Assembly: GCF_000744885.1 (NCBI RefSeq)
Contig: NZ_JQMV01000003.1
Location: forward strand, 1,488,001-1,552,000
Reading direction: 5' to 3'
Length of the DNA: 64,000 nt
From: Thermus amyloliquefaciens
GTDB taxonomy: Bacteria > Deinococcota > Deinococci > Deinococcales > Thermaceae
The notes below the pieces were generated by a model that did no database searches, was not told the origin of the DNA, and saw only the letters and a program-made list of their open reading frames with translations. The position numbers and the translations under genes are program-made. Shown piece by piece: positions 37,403 to 59,690 of this stretch. Position 1 is the stretch's first letter. Every line of letters begins with the position of its first letter.

Positions 37403-37485
37403 GTCTCCTCCTAGCAAAAGGCGAAGGCCCCCAAGGGGCACACTATGGGAAAGCTTAGCACATCCCCTTGCCTTCCTTCCACACC

Positions 37486-41689: not shown

Positions 41690-41977
41690 ATGCCCACCTT
41701 TATCGTCCTCAGCACCCTCACGGACGATGGCGCCGAGACCCTGGTGAAGAACCCCGAACGCATCAAGGAGGTGAACCAGGAGCTGGAAAGGGACTTCGGG
41801 GTCAAGGTGGTGGCCCAGTATGCGGTCTTGGGGCCTTATGACTTCGTGAACATCGTGGAGGCGGAGGATGCCTTGGCCGTGGCCCGGGCCATGCTCCACC
41901 TCGGGGCGCGGGGGAGCGTGAAGACCACCACCCTCGAGGCCATCCCCGTGGCCGACCTCATCGCCAAGCTCAAGTAG
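41690..41977 (+). CDS. GYD-domain protein
   Basis: 95 residues, ferredoxin-like alpha/beta dimerisation fold. TFIVLSTLTDDGAETLVKNPERI and VVAQYAVLGPYDFVNIVEAEDA are the GYD signature, and GSVKTTTLEAIPVADL closes it. Function of the family is uncertain. AAAGGAGG lies 7 nt before the ATG. Its stop overlaps by one base the GTG of the glyoxalase-like remnant. Confidence 0.88.
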   Translation: MPTFIVLSTLTDDGAETLVKNPERIKEVNQELERDFGVKVVAQYAVLGPYDFVNIVEAEDALAVARAMLHLGARGSVKTTTLEAIPVADLIAKLK

Positions 41978-42204
41978 TGGAGGTCCTGGAGACCGCGGTC
42001 TACGCCGAGGACCTGGAAAAGGCCCGGGCCTTTTACGAGGGGGTCCTGGGCCTCCCCTGCTTCCAGTTCAAGCCGCCCCGCCACGCCTTTTTCCGGGCCG
42101 GGCGCGGGGTCTTCCTGGTCTTCAACCCCGAGCAGACGGGGAAGGACGAGGCCCTGCCCCCCCACGGGGCCAAAGGAACTTTATGCCAAAGCAGGCATCC
42201 CTGA
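41977..42204 (+). pseudogene. truncated glyoxalase/VOC-family gene
   Basis: The first ~62 residues (VLETAVYAEDLEKARAFYEGVLGL, FFRAGRGVFLVFNPEQTG, PPHGAKG) are a normal N-terminal half of a vicinal-oxygen-chelate protein. The frame then ends in unrelated CQSRHP at 42204. The second half of the fold, including the C-terminal Glu ligand, is missing. At about 42172 the DNA changes into the tail of a Uma2 gene in another frame. It looks like a deletion or recombination scar. Confidence 0.75.
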
Positions 42205-47216: not shown

Positions 47217-47391
47217 CCAGGTCCGGTCCCCCGGGGGCAAACCCGGGCGCTTGCCCGCACCGGCCCGCGGGCCCTGGCGGCCTTGAGGTGGGCGATCCAG
47301 GCCCTGGCGTCCATGCCCACCCCGACCTCCGGCTCCCCCTGGGGAAGATCCCCTAAACCTCCTTGCGGAGGGGGGTGCGCCTGGGGGATAT

Positions 47392-47417
47392 AAAAAGAGG
47401 GCGGCCCGCAGGCCGCC
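47392..47417 (-). terminator. terminator after tRNA-Ser
   Basis: On the minus strand GGCGGCC/GGCCGCC form a 7-bp stem with a 4-nt loop, then CTC and five T. It starts 2 nt past the CCA of tRNA-Ser. The 175 bp between it and the 47216 stop holds no gene I can support. Confidence 0.8.
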
Positions 47418-47419
47418 TT

Positions 47420-47511
47420 TGGCGGAGGGGGCGGGATTCGAACCCGCGAGGCCCCTTGCGGGGCCTACCGGTTTTCGAGACCGGCCCGTTCAACCGCTCC
47501 GGCACCCCTCC
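47420..47511 (-). tRNA. tRNA-Ser (anticodon CGA)
   Basis: 92 nt, class II. Acceptor GGAGGGG (47505-47511) pairs with CCCCTCC, discriminator G, encoded CCA at 47420-47422. Anticodon loop CTCGAAA on a CCGGT/ACCGG stem; a long variable arm (GGCCCCGCAAGGGGCC) and the T-loop GTTCGAATC. Its first 22 nt are also the last codons of tilS-tadA on the same strand. Confidence 0.96.
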
Positions 47512-49034
47512 CTGAGCCGGGCGAAGAAGTCCTTTAGGAGCTTAGCACACTCCCCCTCCAGGAGGCCACCCCTCAGCCCCTCCCCGTGGCCAAACCGGGT
47601 CAAGGCCCCCTCCTTCAGGTTCTCCGCCCCGTAGACCACCTCCACCCCCGCCTCCTGCAGGGCGTGGTGGCACATGCGGCAGGGCTCGAGGGTCACGTAA
47701 AGCCTCCCCCCCCGGGCCCGTCGGCCCACCCGGCGCAGGAGGAGCATCTCCGCGTGGGCCGTGGGGTCCTGGGTGGCCTCCACCCGGTTGTGGTCGGCGT
47801 GGACCTCCTCCCCCACCACCAGGACCGCCCCCACCGGAACCTCCCCCTCCTGGAAGGCCGCCCGGGCCTCCCCCAGGGCCAAGGCCATGAAGCCCTCCTC
47901 CTCCGGCGGCGGGAAAAGGCCCAAGACCTCCAGGACCCGCTTCCCCTCCGCCCGCACGGGCCAAAGCCCCTTGAGCTCCTTGGGCACCCCCTTCTCCGCC
48001 AGGAAGTCCCGCAGGCGCTTCCTCCCAAAAGGCCTTTCCAGGTAGTCCCCGGGCTCCGGCCGGCGGAAGCCCGGGGGCAGGGGGAGTTTGGGGTCAGGGG
48101 GGATGAGGAAGAGGGTGCCCCCCTTGCGCCGGGCCAGATGCCCTCCCGGAAGGGTCGCCGCCCTGCCCCCCAAGGCCTCCTCCAGGAGGGCGATGAGCCT
48201 TCCCTCGGGCCTGAGGTCCAGGGCCTCCAGCACCCGCCGCAAGGCCCGCCGGCGCAGGACAGCCGGTGCCCTGAGGAGGGGCGCTGCCCGGAAGGCGGGC
48301 ACGAAGAAACGGGGGTCGGGGAGAAGGCGAGCCCCGGCCTCCCGCTCCAGGTGGTCCTCCTCCTCCTCCCGCACCCCGGCGAAACGGGCCAGGGCCTCCT
48401 TGGCCCGGGGGAAGCGGGCCTCCAAGAGGGGAAAGACCGCAAGCCTCAGGTAGTTCCGGTCCAGGGCGAGGTCCCGGTTGGAAGGATCCTCCCGCCAAAC
48501 CTCCTTAAGCTCCCGCAGGAAGGCCCTCAGCTCCTCCCGACGGAAGGGGAGGAGGGGCCGCACCACCAGGCCCTCCCTTTCCCGGATGCCCAGGCCCCGG
48601 GCCGTGCCCTGGAGGAGCTTGAGGACCACGGTCTCCGCCTGGTCGTCCAGGGTGTGGGCGGTGAGGATGGCCCTGGCCCCCACCTCCTTGGCCACCCGGT
48701 GCAAGAAGGCGTAGCGGATCTCCCGGGCCACCGCCTCCAGGTTCTCCCCCCGCTTCTCGGCAACCCTCCCCACCTCCACCCGCTCGGCCCGGAAGGGGAA
48801 GCCGAGCCTTTCCGCCAGGGCCCGCACGAAGGCCAAATCCTCCCCGCTATCCGGGCGGAGGGCGTGGTCCAGGTGGGCCACCACCGCCTCCCTCCCCGCC
48901 CGCCTCGTCAGGTGGGCCAAGGCCACCGAGTCCCCACCCCCCGAGACGGCCAGCACCAAGGGGTCCTTGGGAGCAAGCCGGGAAAGCCGCTCCCGGAAGG
49001 CCTCCTCCAGGCCCTGGGAAAACCTCTCAGGCAA
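47490..49034 (-). CDS. tilS: tRNA(Ile)-lysidine synthetase fused to a TadA-like tRNA adenosine deaminase
   Basis: 514 residues. The N-terminal ~370 residues are TilS, which converts C34 of tRNA-Ile(CAU) to lysidine: PP-loop SGGGDS at 31-36, the downstream HLDHALRP, and the TilS-C domain. The C-terminal ~140 residues are a TadA-like deaminase (EVPVGAVLVVGEEV, zinc site HAEM and PCRMCHHAL), which normally makes inosine at position 34. Both act on the tRNA wobble base, so the fusion is logical. TTG start with GGAGGTG upstream, overlapping the preceding gene by 8 nt. Its last seven codons and the TGA lie inside the tRNA-Ser gene. Confidence 0.93.
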   Translation of the reverse strand: MPERFSQGLEEAFRERLSRLAPKDPLVLAVSGGGDSVALAHLTRRAGREAVVAHLDHALRPDSGEDLAFVRALAERLGFPFRAERVEVGRVAEKRGENLEAVAREIRYAFLHRVAKEVGARAILTAHTLDDQAETVVLKLLQGTARGLGIREREGLVVRPLLPFRREELRAFLRELKEVWREDPSNRDLALDRNYLRLAVFPLLEARFPRAKEALARFAGVREEEEDHLEREAGARLLPDPRFFVPAFRAAPLLRAPAVLRRRALRRVLEALDLRPEGRLIALLEEALGGRAATLPGGHLARRKGGTLFLIPPDPKLPLPPGFRRPEPGDYLERPFGRKRLRDFLAEKGVPKELKGLWPVRAEGKRVLEVLGLFPPPEEEGFMALALGEARAAFQEGEVPVGAVLVVGEEVHADHNRVEATQDPTAHAEMLLLRRVGRRARGGRLYVTLEPCRMCHHALQEAGVEVVYGAENLKEGALTRFGHGEGLRGGLLEGECAKLLKDFFARLREGCRSG

Positions 49035-49419
49035 GCCGGGCCACCTCCGCCTTCAAGGTGGAAAGGCAGCAGCGGCCCCTGGGGTTGCGCTGGTCGCAGG
49101 CGCAACGCTTGGCCCTCACCCCCTCCTCCACCTGGGCCACGGGGTCCAGGCCCTGCCGCAAGGCCTCCGCCAGCCCCTCCCGGGTCCAATCAAAGCAGTA
49201 GCAGATGAGGGAAGCGCCCTTGTCGTAGATGGGAAAGCGCACCTCCTCCAGGGTGTACACCCCTTCCCGCCCGTAGTAGACCACGGGGCAGCCAGGGTCC
49301 TGGCAGAGGTAATGGGGGCTCCCGGGGTCCAGCCGGGCAAGAGCTTTCCCCATGAGGAAGTTTTTCACCGCCTTCAGGGGCACCTCGAGGCCCGCCCTGC
49401 CGTTTTGCGGGCATACCAT
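49027..49419 (-). CDS. CopZ N-terminal-like Cys-rich (zinc/[2Fe-2S]) protein
   Basis: 130 residues with nine Cys: VCPQNG, YLCQDPGCPVVYY, LICYCFDWTR and KRCACDQRNPRGRCCLST. This pattern resembles the N-terminal [2Fe-2S]/zinc domain of archaeal CopZ, but no HMA copper domain follows. It may be a redox or metal-handling protein. The ATG at 49419 has TATAGT 6 nt upstream and no Shine-Dalgarno. tilS-tadA is downstream and overlaps by 8 nt. Divergent from a CDGSH gene. Confidence 0.75.
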   Translation of the reverse strand: MVCPQNGRAGLEVPLKAVKNFLMGKALARLDPGSPHYLCQDPGCPVVYYGREGVYTLEEVRFPIYDKGASLICYCFDWTREGLAEALRQGLDPVAQVEEGVRAKRCACDQRNPRGRCCLSTLKAEVARLA

Positions 49420-49450
49420 GCTTCCACTATAGCCGCGGTATCCTAACCCC
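49420..49450. promoter_or_regulatory. 31-nt divergent spacer with two -10 boxes
   Basis: TATAGT on the minus strand (49426-49431) and TATCCT on the plus strand (49439-49444) each lie exactly 6 nt before their start codons. There is no Shine-Dalgarno on either side. Confidence 0.6.
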
Positions 49451-49660
49451 ATGAGGCTTCGCTTCCGGGAAAACGGCCCCTACGTCCTGGACCTGCCCGA
49501 GGGAACCCCCTTCCGCCTGAACGGGGAGGAGATGCGGCTAGAAAGGGCCAACCTCGCCCTTTGCCGCTGCGGCCAGTCCGGAAACAAACCCTTCTGCGAC
49601 GGGAGCCACAAGGAGGTGGGGTTCCAGGCGGAGAAAGGGGAGCTGGAAACAGCCCCCTAG
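49451..49660 (+). CDS. CDGSH-type iron-sulfur protein
   Basis: 69 residues. The CDGSH [2Fe-2S] signature is complete: Cys38, Cys40, Cys49 and His53 in CRCGQSGNKPFCDGSHK. The N-terminus (RFRENGPYVLDLPEG) is the short beta-strand pair common in bacterial single-motif members. Such proteins are redox-active and can pass clusters on. TATCCT is 6 nt before the ATG. Confidence 0.92.
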   Translation: MRLRFRENGPYVLDLPEGTPFRLNGEEMRLERANLALCRCGQSGNKPFCDGSHKEVGFQAEKGELETAP

Positions 49661-54345: not shown

Positions 54346-54432
54346 TGGTGCCGGGGGCGGGACTCGAACCCGCACGTCCTTGCGGACAGCAGATTTTGAG
54401 TCTGCCGCGTCTACCGGTTCCGCCACCCCGGC
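54346..54432 (-). tRNA. tRNA-Leu (anticodon CAA)
   Basis: 87 nt, class II. Acceptor GCCGGGG (54426-54432) pairs with CCCCGGC; discriminator A and encoded CCA at 54346-54348. Anticodon stem GCAGA/TCTGC with loop CTCAAAA; variable arm TGTCCGCAAGGACGT; T-loop GTTCGAGTC. Its first 22 nt overlap the 3' end of lnt on the same strand. Confidence 0.96.
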
Positions 54433-55742
54433 GCGCGCACCCTAAGGATAAGGCCCAAGAGGAAAAGCGTCAACGCCACCCCCACCGCCCAGTCCCCGTA
54501 GCGGACATAGAAGGTGCTTCCTTCCCTCAAGCCATAAGGCGCCAGCAAGTACCCCTCCTGGTGCGGGGGGATCTGGGCCGCCACCCGGCCGTAGGGGTCT
54601 ATGCTGGCGGTGATGCCGTCGTTTCCCACCCTCAGGAGCCAGCGCCCCGTTTCCACCGCCCGCAAGCGCCCTAAGGCAAAGTGCTGTCTGCCCCCAAAGG
54701 AAGGCCCAAACCAGGCATCGTTGGTGAGGAGAACCAGCACCCTAGCCCCCTCCCGGGCCAGGGTGCGGGCCACGGAAGGAAACACGGACTCATAGCAGAT
54801 CATGACCCCGTAGGGGCCGATGGGGGCCAACCGGTCCCCTGGCGTCCGGTCCGAAAGCTCCCCCAGGCCAAAGGCGCGAAAGAAATAGCCGTACACCCCC
54901 CCCAGGACCTCCCGAAAGGGAAAACGCTCCCCAAAGGGCACCAGGCGCACCTTGTCGTAATGACCCAGGACCCTGCCATCCTGGTAAAGGGCCGCCCGGT
55001 TGGGGCCATAGAGGTTTAGGCCCGTGAGGAGGAAACGGCCCGCCAGGAGGTGGTCCAGGCCCCCTGGGATCCCCCAGACCGCCGTCTCTGGCCAGACCAC
55101 CAGCCGGGCCTCGGGATGCCTTTGCAAGCCCTCCCGCGAGAGGCGGAGGTAGACCTCCTCGTCCAGCTCCCCCTGGACCTTGGACAAGGGGTTGATGTTG
55201 CCCTGGACCAGCAGGGCCTTCCCCTCCCCCGTGGCCGGGGGTAGGGGCACCAACCACAGGACTGCCCAGGGAAGAAGAAGCCCATAGCGGCGTTCCCGAA
55301 GGCCCCAGGCCAAAAGGAGGACCAAAAGGGAGAGGAGGTAGACCCCACCCCAAGCGGCCAGCACCCGCCCTGGGGCCTCCACCAGGCTGTAGCCCAAGAA
55401 CCCCCAGGGGAAGGCCAGGTCCCCTTGCTCCGTGAGCCACTCCAGCACCACCCATCCCCCCACCCGGGCCAGGGGCGTGGGGGTAAGGGCGAAGAGGAGA
55501 CCAAAGGAAAGGGCCTTAAAGAGCACCAGGGGAAGAAAGGGCAGAGCCCCCAAGGGGCCGAAGAGCTGGGTAAAGCTCTGGGGAAGCCAGATGAGGTGGA
55601 GGCCCCAAAACCCCAGGCCCATGAGGAAGCCCGTGCGAAAGCCCCCGCGAAGGAGAAAGGCCAGGACCAACGGGGCGAAAAAGCCCAAAGGGAAAGGGGG
55701 CAGGGTGAGGGCGAGGAGGAGGCCCAGGAGGAAGGACCGCAC
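54411..55742 (-). CDS. lnt: apolipoprotein N-acyltransferase
   Basis: 443 residues. Adds the third acyl chain to lipoproteins in the inner membrane. Several N-terminal membrane helices (1-170), a nitrilase-like domain with VVWPETAVWG (Glu), HYDKVRLVPFGE (Lys) and MICYESVFP (Cys) as the catalytic triad, then a final helix. GTG at 55742 is chosen: TATGGT lies exactly 6 nt upstream and the predicted N-terminus (RSFLLGLLLALTL) fits a membrane helix. The last seven codons and the TAG lie within tRNA-Leu. Confidence 0.92.
   Translation of the reverse strand: MRSFLLGLLLALTLPPFPLGFFAPLVLAFLLRGGFRTGFLMGLGFWGLHLIWLPQSFTQLFGPLGALPFLPLVLFKALSFGLLFALTPTPLARVGGWVVLEWLTEQGDLAFPWGFLGYSLVEAPGRVLAAWGGVYLLSLLVLLLAWGLRERRYGLLLPWAVLWLVPLPPATGEGKALLVQGNINPLSKVQGELDEEVYLRLSREGLQRHPEARLVVWPETAVWGIPGGLDHLLAGRFLLTGLNLYGPNRAALYQDGRVLGHYDKVRLVPFGERFPFREVLGGVYGYFFRAFGLGELSDRTPGDRLAPIGPYGVMICYESVFPSVARTLAREGARVLVLLTNDAWFGPSFGGRQHFALGRLRAVETGRWLLRVGNDGITASIDPYGRVAAQIPPHQEGYLLAPYGLREGSTFYVRYGDWAVGVALTLFLLGLILRVRAPGWRNR
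54445..54473 (-). promoter_or_regulatory. tRNA-Leu promoter embedded in lnt
   Basis: On the minus strand TTGACG (54468-54473) and TATCCT (54445-54450) are 17 nt apart. The tRNA 5' end is 12 nt past the -10. It lies inside the codons for the last membrane helix of Lnt. Confidence 0.7.
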
Positions 55743-55812
55743 CCCTTTACCATAAGGGGTGGGCACGGGTTTTTTCACAGGCTTTTCTCCCCTTGCGTGA
55801 GAAAATGGGCCC

Positions 55813-56517
55813 ATGCGCCTAGGGGTCCTTTCCGACATCCACGCCAACCTACCGGCCCTGGAGGCGGCCCTCGAGGCCCTGAGACAAGAGGGGGTGGACG
55901 AGGTGCTGGTCCTGGGGGACCTGGTGGGCTACGGCCCCCACCCCAAGCAGGTCATCGGACGCCTGATGAAGGAAGGGCTTCCCGCCATCGCCGGGGCCTG
56001 GGACCTGCGGATCGCCTACCCCTTGCCGGCCAGCCTGCCCGAAGGGGTGGGCAAGGCCACCTTGGAATGGACCCGGGCCCAGCTCTCGGAAAAAGAACTG
56101 GCTTATCTCCGCTCCTTGCGCCTTTCCCATCGCAAAACCTACGGGGAAAAGCGCCTCGTGGCCTTCCACGGCGCTCCGGGAAACCCCGAGAAGCACCTGG
56201 ACCTCCTGGGCCCCGCCAAGGAACTCCTGCCCCATCTGGAGCGTTACAATGCCGCCACCCTCCTCTTAGGAGGCCGGCACCTCCCCCTTGCCCGGCGGGT
56301 GGGAACGGGCCTTTTGGCGGACCCGGGGAGCGTGGGCCTCAGCCTCAGCGGGGAGCCCGGGGCCGACGCCATGGTCCTGGACACGGAAACCCTAGAGGTC
56401 CGCTTCCTAAAGGTGCCCTACGACCTAGGCCCCCTGATCTTTGACCTCAGGGCCTGGGGCCTCCCCCCGGTCCTGGAAAGGGTCTACCGCACGGGGCGCT
56501 TCCTCAAGGAGGACTAG
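55813..56517 (+). CDS. calcineurin-like metallophosphoesterase with altered metal motifs
   Basis: 234 residues. The first motifs are normal (SDIHANL, Asp8/His10; VLGDLVGYGP, Asp36). However, GNHD is replaced by GAWD (61-64), and the late GHTH is replaced by GGRH (in LLLGGRHLPLARR); the middle AFHGAPG is retained. Metal binding may therefore be weak or changed. Related to YfcE/COG0639 phosphodiesterases. GAAAAT lies 6 nt before the ATG. Its last 93 nt overlap queG on the other strand. Confidence 0.8.
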   Translation: MRLGVLSDIHANLPALEAALEALRQEGVDEVLVLGDLVGYGPHPKQVIGRLMKEGLPAIAGAWDLRIAYPLPASLPEGVGKATLEWTRAQLSEKELAYLRSLRLSHRKTYGEKRLVAFHGAPGNPEKHLDLLGPAKELLPHLERYNAATLLLGGRHLPLARRVGTGLLADPGSVGLSLSGEPGADAMVLDTETLEVRFLKVPYDLGPLIFDLRAWGLPPVLERVYRTGRFLKED

Positions 56518-58622: not shown

Positions 58623-59678
58623 ATGAGACTTCCCCTCTTGGAACGCTACCGGGCCCATCTTCCCGTGTCCCTGAACACGCCCGTGATCTCCCTGCTGGAA
58701 GGCTCCACCCCCCTGCTCCCCCTAAAGGGCCCTGAGGAGGCCCGAAGGCGGGGCATACGCCTCTACGCCAAGTTGGAAGGCCTAAACCCCACGGGCAGCT
58801 TCAAGGACCGGGGCATGACCCTGGCGGTGTCCAAGGCGGTGGAGGAGGGGGCCAAGGCGGTAGCGGCCGCCAGCACCGGCAACACCGCCGCCAGCGCCGC
58901 CGCCTACGCCGCCCGGGCGGGGATCCGGGCCCTGGTGATCCTGCCCGCGGGGTACGTGGCCCTGGGGAAGGTGGCCCAAAGCCTGGTGCACGGAGCCCGG
59001 GTCATCCAGATCGAGGGCAACTTTGACCAGGCCCTGGCCCTCACCAAGGCCCTCACCGAGGCCTACCCGGTGGCCCTGGTGAACTCCTTGAACCCCTACC
59101 GCCTGGAAGGCCAGAAGACCCTGGCCTTTGAGGTGGTGGAGGAGCTGGGGGATGCCCCCCACTACCACGCCCTCCCCGTGGGCAACGCCGGCAACATCAC
59201 CGCCCACTGGATGGGGTACAGGGAGTACCACGCCCTGGGCAAGGCGAGCCGCCTCCCCCGGATGCTGGGCTTCCAGGCGGCGGGCGCCGCCCCCTTGGTC
59301 CTGGGCCGGCCCGTGGAGAAGCCGGAAACCCTGGCCACCGCCATTCGCATCGGCAACCCCGCCAGCTGGCAGGGGGCCATCCGGGCCAAGGAGGAGTCCG
59401 GTGGAACGATAGAGGCGGTGACGGACGAGGAGATTCTCGCCGCCTACCGCTACCTGGCCGAGGAGGAGGGCGTCTTCTGCGAACCCGCCTCCGCCGCCGC
59501 CATGGCCGGGGTGTGGAAGCTCTTGCGGGAGGACCGGCTGGATCCGGGAAGCACCGTGGTCCTCACCCTCACGGGCCACGGCCTCAAGGACCCGGCCACC
59601 GCGGAGAAGGTGGCGGGGCTCCTGCCCCCGGTGCCGGCGACCCTCGAGGCGGTGGCCCAGGCCGCGGGGCTGGTGTGA
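58623..59678 (+). CDS. thrC: threonine synthase
   Basis: 351 residues. PLP enzyme making threonine from O-phosphohomoserine. Lys61 in NPTGSFKDRGM binds PLP; AAASTGNTAASAAAYAARAG and PVGNAGNITAHW are the phosphate and PLP-binding loops. TAGAAT, formed by the last codons of hom, lies 6 nt before the ATG and may give an extra leaderless transcript. It matches the T. thermophilus enzyme type. Confidence 0.96.
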   Translation: MRLPLLERYRAHLPVSLNTPVISLLEGSTPLLPLKGPEEARRRGIRLYAKLEGLNPTGSFKDRGMTLAVSKAVEEGAKAVAAASTGNTAASAAAYAARAGIRALVILPAGYVALGKVAQSLVHGARVIQIEGNFDQALALTKALTEAYPVALVNSLNPYRLEGQKTLAFEVVEELGDAPHYHALPVGNAGNITAHWMGYREYHALGKASRLPRMLGFQAAGAAPLVLGRPVEKPETLATAIRIGNPASWQGAIRAKEESGGTIEAVTDEEILAAYRYLAEEEGVFCEPASAAAMAGVWKLLREDRLDPGSTVVLTLTGHGLKDPATAEKVAGLLPPVPATLEAVAQAAGLV

Positions 59679-59690
59679 TAAGCTTGGGCC

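What the first reader, a model, noticed from the sequence alone, without database searches (positions are those of the whole stretch)
47420..49034. tilS-tadA ends inside tRNA-Ser(CGA)
The last seven codons and the TGA of tilS-tadA (47490-47511) are the first 22 nt of tRNA-Ser on the same strand; the TGA lies in the D-arm. If tRNA-Ser comes from the long transcript, RNase P cleavage would strip the stop codon from the mRNA, so each transcript could yield either protein or tRNA, not both. I see no convincing private promoter for this tRNA. The protein modifies tRNA, so feedback is conceivable.
Basis: partly seen in the sequence, partly recalled or inferred. Interest (0 to 1): 0.6.

Follow-up and report, generated by a model that had tools for sequence, protein, structure and literature searches.

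The report
tRNA gene overlapping tilS-tadA's end
In all 26 Thermus genomes in which the gene was found, a tRNA-modifying enzyme gene borrows its stop codon from inside the serine tRNA gene behind it, and that tRNA is probably made from its own promoter hidden in the enzyme's last codons, so this looks like tight gene packing rather than a feedback switch.

Summary
The overlap is real: tilS-tadA (49034→47490, minus strand) ends with six codons, plus one base of a seventh, and a TGA inside tRNA-Ser(CGA) (47511→47420). All 26 Thermus genomes that encode the fusion have it (25 at the same D-loop TGA, one in another frame). Relatives form a continuum, from an intergenic tRNA promoter, through promoters straddling or inside the tadA end, to overlap; a tree needs at least three changes.

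TGTGCTAAGCT (47549→47539), an extended -10, sits inside tadA 27 nt before the tRNA. It uses TGT-GCT codons fixed in 24/24 scored genomes. The motif occurs four times in the genome: the other three all lie just upstream of a start codon (two of them 6 nt). A terminator follows the tRNA everywhere.

A second case lies in the same window: lnt (55847→54411) ends in the D-loop of tRNA-Leu(CAA), with TTGACG-17-TATCCT inside lnt, in 26/26 genomes. Lnt has no tRNA role, which argues against feedback.

Best reading: promoter-ORF-tRNA-terminator packing; the tRNA is mainly self-transcribed, and the long mRNA still risks losing its stop to RNase P. No transcript data were available.

The parts
47490..49034 (-). 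tilS-tadA fusion, 514 aa; N-terminal TilS, C-terminal TadA deaminase; TGA stop at 47492-47490
47420..47511 (-). tRNA-Ser(CGA), the only CGA serine tRNA found in the genome
47490..47511 (-). 22-nt overlap: one base of Arg-508, codons E-G-C-R-S-G and TGA = tRNA nt 1-22 (acceptor 5' strand to D-loop)
47539..47549 (-). extended -10-like element TGTGCTAAGCT (TAAGCT at 47544-47539) inside codons C496-A497-K498-L499; 27 nt before tRNA nt 1
47563..47568 (-). weak -35-like TGGCCT, 18-nt spacer; its first T is the third base of GGT (G489), fixed in 24/24 genomes
47400..47417 (-). intrinsic terminator hairpin GGCGGCCTGCGGGCCGCC followed by CTCTTTTTAT, 2 nt after the tRNA CCA; a stable hairpin follows the tRNA in the Thermus genomes examined
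49027..49452 (-). CopZ-like zinc/iron-sulfur protein ORF whose end overlaps the tilS start by 8 nt; probable upstream gene of the same transcript (inferred)
54411..55847 (-). second case: lnt (apolipoprotein N-acyltransferase), 478 aa, TAG stop inside tRNA-Leu(CAA)
54346..54432 (-). tRNA-Leu(CAA); first 22 nt shared with the lnt 3' end
54445..54473 (-). promoter TTGACG-17-TATCCT inside lnt, -10 ends 12 nt before tRNA-Leu; present in the 26 Thermus genomes (-35 TTGACG or TTGACC)

Best explanation
This is a compact promoter-ORF-tRNA-terminator packing. tRNA-Ser(CGA) is made mainly from its own sigmaA-type, extended -10 promoter, buried in the codons for C-A-K-L of TadA's last helix. RNA polymerase would start about 20 nt before the tRNA and stop at the terminator just after the CCA. 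The tilS-tadA mRNA comes from further upstream, runs through the same tRNA and terminator, and uses the D-loop TGA as its stop codon. The overlap follows from geometry: the promoter sits about ten codons before the natural end of TadA and must lie roughly 10-30 nt before the tRNA, so the stop falls at or inside the tRNA, which supplies a dispensable tail (EGCRSG) and a stop. RNase P cleavage of long transcripts would make nonstop mRNA; this is tolerated because the leading ribosome can finish before the tRNA folds, the terminator stem may slow processing, and tmRNA is present. Shown by sequence: overlap, conservation, promoter-like element with constrained codons, terminator, tmRNA gene. Inferred: transcription start, co-transcription, the cleavage conflict and how it is tolerated.
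For: Overlap in 26/26 fusion-bearing Thermus genomes. Of 330 conserved degenerate codon columns of tilS-tadA, only three carry one A/T-ending codon in at least 90% of genomes: GGT489, TGT496, GCT497; the last two form the -10 and the first falls at the -35 position with an 18-nt spacer. The same test on lnt finds two of 249, CTT466 and CTT468, which carry the first and last T of its TATCCT; chance figures about 6e-5 and 3e-5 under random placement (descriptive only). TGTGNTAAGCT occurs four times in 2.16 Mb, against 0 for the reversed pattern; the other three lie before start codons. Other Thermus tRNAs have TTGAC-N17-TAnnnT promoters, several with a TG extension; tRNA-Ile(GAT) uses TAAGCT too. 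In relatives the promoter lies between the genes (g4: TTGTGCTAAAGT), straddles the tadA stop (g3: TTGACG-17-TAAAGT) or lies inside tadA with the stop 4-12 nt before the tRNA (g13, g12). Terminator hairpin after the tRNA across Thermus. TadAs of known structure end within a few residues of the matching point. tmRNA present.
Against: On sequence alone the promoter is modest: score 8.6, reached by 1.85% of random windows, among the weakest of 34 tRNA leaders, with a poor -35 and a 27-nt gap to the tRNA against a usual 11-17. C-A-K-L is also a conserved protein motif, although the choice of TGT and GCT is not explained by that. No transcription start data for Thermus were found. Relative G049 (g2) has a similar motif in tadA although its tRNA lies about 100 nt further on.
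Confidence: 0.77

Rival explanations
1. tRNA-Ser(CGA) is made only or mainly by processing the long tilS-tadA transcript, so each transcript yields either protein or tRNA.
For: No terminator found between the genes; shared terminator after the tRNA; stop codon lies downstream of the tRNA 5' end.
Against: Fixed rare synonymous codons forming an extended -10, the same motif before genes elsewhere, intergenic promoter in relatives, and a near-consensus promoter in the parallel lnt case.
Confidence: 0.1
2. The overlap is a regulatory device: RNase P cleavage destroys the stop codon and so limits TilS-TadA, possibly as feedback on tRNA processing or tRNA supply.
For: Genus-wide conservation and at least three changes of state on the tree; cleavage would give nonstop mRNA by position; tmRNA present.
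Against: Relatives with the same two genes keep them apart; G015 keeps the overlap in another frame; the enzyme does not act on tRNA-Ser; the same arrangement at lnt; geometry explains it without regulation.
Confidence: 0.1
3. The conserved TGT-GCT-AAG-CT block reflects protein or mRNA constraint (conserved C-A-K-L helix, RNA leader structure), not a promoter.
For: C-A-x-L-like residues are shared with TadA relatives; codons just before the tRNA (505-508) are also fixed and end in G/C, which could be a leader constraint.
Against: Protein constraint does not explain fixed A/T-ending codons in a gene with 13% A/T at third positions; lnt shows the same signature exactly at its -10; motif re-used before gene starts.
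Confidence: 0.12

Closest known systems
secG-leuU mRNA-tRNA dicistronic transcript of E. coli (Mohanty and Kushner 2008, title seen in the reference list of PMC3985628; paper itself not readable)
   Same: Protein gene and tRNA on one transcript that ends in a Rho-independent terminator after the tRNA; by its title the terminator inhibits RNase P processing.
   Different: As far as I know the secG stop is outside leuU; here the stop codon is inside the tRNA, and the tRNA has a likely promoter inside the ORF.
Small RNAs with ORF-embedded promoters at mRNA 3' ends, e.g. DapZ in dapB and MicL in cutC (PMC9438474)
   Same: Promoter inside the end of a coding sequence (DapZ just upstream of the dapB stop), making a short 3' RNA that still accumulates when the parent gene is silent.
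   Different: The product here is a housekeeping tRNA, the stop codon lies within the RNA's folded part, and 5' maturation needs RNase P.
rnpA-rpmH nested genes of Thermus (Feltens 2003, as described in PMC9841429)
   Same: Unusual tight gene overlap in Thermus.
   Different: Two protein genes sharing a translation start, not a protein gene and a tRNA.
Overlaps of tRNA and protein genes in animal mitochondria (general knowledge)
   Same: Gene ends share bases with tRNAs and processing at the tRNA competes with a complete mRNA.
   Different: Mitochondrial tRNAs lack private promoters and stops are often completed by polyadenylation.

Membership tests
TilS (tRNA-Ile lysidine synthetase) fused to TadA | TilS N-terminal PP-loop domain above curated cut-off | tested here: met
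   TIGR02432 154.5 bits, cut-off 93.6
TilS (tRNA-Ile lysidine synthetase) fused to TadA | TadA-type deaminase domain with zinc motif, related to solved TadA | tested here: met
   PF00383 69.9 bits; A. aeolicus TadA 1wwr E 2.5e-22; the TadA equivalog NF008113 hits but below its cut-off, 84.5 of 150
TilS (tRNA-Ile lysidine synthetase) fused to TadA | Lysidine and inosine formation on tRNA | not testable with these tools
   needs biochemistry
tRNA-Ser(CGA) | Type II cloverleaf with long variable arm, CGA anticodon, encoded CCA | tested here: met
RNA with an ORF-embedded promoter | Promoter consensus and position-specific constraint on synonymous sites | tested here: met
   consensus match itself modest
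RNA with an ORF-embedded promoter | Mapped primary 5' end inside the ORF | not testable with these tools
   no Thermus start-site data found
mRNA-tRNA dicistronic transcript | Both genes on one strand with no terminator between and one after the tRNA | tested here: met
mRNA-tRNA dicistronic transcript | Read-through RNA observed | not testable with these tools
   no RNA data

The most novel reading that the evidence does not exclude
In Thermus, long tilS-tadA and lnt transcripts act as choice points: a ribosome reaching the D-loop stop blocks tRNA folding, while RNase P cleavage strips the stop and sends later ribosomes to tmRNA rescue, so tRNA maturation caps protein yield at two unrelated genes.
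Probability: 0.1. Interest if true: 0.75.

Novelty: new variant of a known kind. Interest (0 to 1): 0.42.

Why it matters
It documents two genus-wide bacterial cases in which a protein gene takes its stop codon from inside a tRNA, with the tRNA promoter embedded in the same coding sequence, and a set of relatives that shows the intermediate steps. It gives a natural system to test how translation termination, tRNA folding, RNase P and ribosome rescue compete on one RNA. It also warns that gene callers that forbid tRNA overlap may truncate or mis-call such genes.

Tried and rejected
Generic sigma-70 scan found no promoter, because the site is an extended -10 with a weak -35; replaced by a comparison with Thermus tRNA leaders and codon conservation. 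It covered 46 tRNA genes with enough upstream sequence, some with only about 300 nt, and its coding filter could miss genes. Literature searches for bacterial tRNA/ORF overlap or Thermus start-site maps found nothing direct; the library is open-access only, so absence is weak evidence of novelty. Feedback through TCG codons rejected (2 codons). Window-wide synonymous conservation just before the tRNA is low but not unique: 24 of 417 windows are as low for codons 496-508; the argument rests on the A/T-ending fixed codons. The criterion for those columns was chosen after seeing the tadA motif; lnt served as the independent repeat. The minimum of three changes on the tree may be gains or gains plus losses, and deep branches are poorly resolved.

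Full report
OBSERVATION. The minus-strand ORF 49034-47490 encodes a TilS-TadA fusion. Its last 22 nt are the first 22 nt of tRNA-Ser(CGA). They hold one base of Arg-508, the codons E-G-C-R-S-G, and a TGA that is nt 20-22 of the tRNA, in the D-loop.

CONSERVATION. The fusion is encoded in 26 of 27 Thermus genomes. In the order, 99 of 111 genomes match at the threshold used, though some of these matched as two pieces. In all 26 Thermus genomes tRNA-Ser(CGA) sits on the tadA end, and in 25 the frame ends at the same TGA (one of these, G016, has a disrupted frame further upstream). In G015 the frame is shifted and runs to a TAG about 47 nt into the tRNA. The tail sequence is therefore not what is kept; the overlap is.

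INTERMEDIATES. Adjacency of tadA and tRNA-Ser(CGA) is wider than the overlap. In most members of genus g4 the stop lies about 39-328 nt upstream of the tRNA, with a promoter such as TTGTGCTAAAGT between. In g3 TTGACG-17-TAAAGT straddles the TAA stop. In g13 and g12 the stop is 4-12 nt before the tRNA and a -10-like motif lies inside tadA. In g14, in G071 (g5) and in G050 (g2) the stop is inside the tRNA, again at GGTTGA. A tree of the C-terminal part needs three changes between the states, two of them forced by well-supported branches.

PROMOTER. Inside tadA, 27 nt before the tRNA, lies TGTGCTAAGCT. Among 24 Thermus sequences, 330 columns are conserved and degenerate; three hold one A/T-ending codon in at least 90% of genomes: GGT489, TGT496 and GCT497. 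TGT and GCT build the extended -10, and the T of GGT is the first base of a weak -35-like hexamer 18 nt upstream. G015 and G016 were not in that count, but both also carry TGTGCTAA at this place. TGTGNTAAGCT occurs four times in the 2.16-Mb genome, the reversed pattern never. Two of the other three lie 6 nt before an ATG, as expected of leaderless genes, and the third stands in a 5' region before a purine-rich ribosome-binding-like site and an ATG. Other tRNA leaders of this genome show TTGAC-N17-TAnnnT, several with TG before the -10. By a simple score the Ser(CGA) site is among the weaker ones (1.85% of random windows score as well), so the case rests on conservation and re-use of the motif.

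SECOND CASE. In the same window lnt (55847-54411) ends RVRAPGWRNR* with its TAG in the D-loop of tRNA-Leu(CAA). All 26 Thermus genomes with a match share this, with TTGACG/C-17-TATCCT inside lnt, 12 nt before the tRNA, and G071 of genus g5 shares the overlap. In lnt only two of 249 conserved columns hold a fixed A/T-ending codon, CTT466 and CTT468, and these carry the first and last T of TATCCT. This was an independent repeat of the test. G050 and G049 have lnt and tRNA-Leu apart, with an intergenic TTGACA promoter-like site. Other tRNAs of the genome have an upstream gene ending within 60 nt: Leu(TAA) at -17, with the stop TAG forming part of its -10 TAGGAT, and five more at -30 to -50.

MECHANISM. 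A hairpin follows the CCA closely at both loci. Each tRNA thus has a promoter, gene and terminator of its own, laid over the end of a protein gene. The protein mRNA has no other terminator before the tRNA in the window and no other stop, so it must include the tRNA. Cutting at the tRNA 5' end would remove the stop codon; that follows from position and was not observed. How the cell lives with this is inferred: the first ribosome follows polymerase closely and may end before the tRNA's 3' half is made; a ribosome at the stop covers the tRNA's 5' half; the terminator stem may slow RNase P, as reported for secG-leuU in E. coli (title in PMC3985628 reference list); and tmRNA is present. TadA homologues of known structure end within a few residues of the same place, so the tRNA-encoded tail replaces a part that is not conserved.

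The conflict between RNase P and the stop codon stands as a deduction for long transcripts. Dependence of the tRNA on them is unlikely, and the feedback idea has no support: the enzyme acts on other tRNAs, and the same layout is found at lnt.

NOVELTY. RNAs with ORF-embedded promoters (PMC9438474) and mRNA-tRNA transcripts are known. I found no report of a genus-wide bacterial tRNA that supplies the stop codon of the gene before it, but the library searched is open-access only. I rate this a new variant of a known kind, interest 0.42.

Noticed in passing
54346-55847 (-): lnt ends inside tRNA-Leu(CAA) with a near-consensus promoter inside the lnt frame; conserved in 26/26 Thermus genomes. A second, stronger case of the same layout, outside the finding's coordinates.
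   Followed up: yes
41972-42064 (+): ARAGORN calls a 93-nt tRNA-Gly(gcc) here, but Rfam does not support it; probably a false call, since a tRNA-Gly(GCC) is found elsewhere in the genome.
   Followed up: partly
37452-37462 (-) and 59674-59684 (+): TGTGCTAAGCT and TGTGATAAGCT, two of only four genome copies; the first precedes a gene starting MEYRLKAQYREGEKPAALRR (perhaps ribosomal protein L25), the second lies 6 nt before an ATG (leaderless-type start).
   Followed up: partly
49027-49034 (-): The CopZ-like ORF end overlaps the tilS-tadA TTG start by 8 nt, suggesting translational coupling; a small ORF (perhaps CDGSH-type) starts divergently at 49451.
   Followed up: no
L106 (G016): tilS-tadA frame is broken between TilS and TadA parts in this 87%-complete genome (two matches); assembly error or real split not decided. 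The TadA end still overlaps the tRNA.
   Followed up: no
L188 / G000:C3 near 760159 (+): Gene upstream of tRNA-Leu(TAA) ends 17 nt before the tRNA, and its TAG stop is the start of the tRNA's -10 TAGGAT.
   Followed up: partly
L099-L103, just after the tRNA-Ser terminator: A palindrome like ATATCCCCCATTTGGGGGAT follows the terminator in five Thermus genomes; part of it also appears near 47388 in the window.
   Followed up: no
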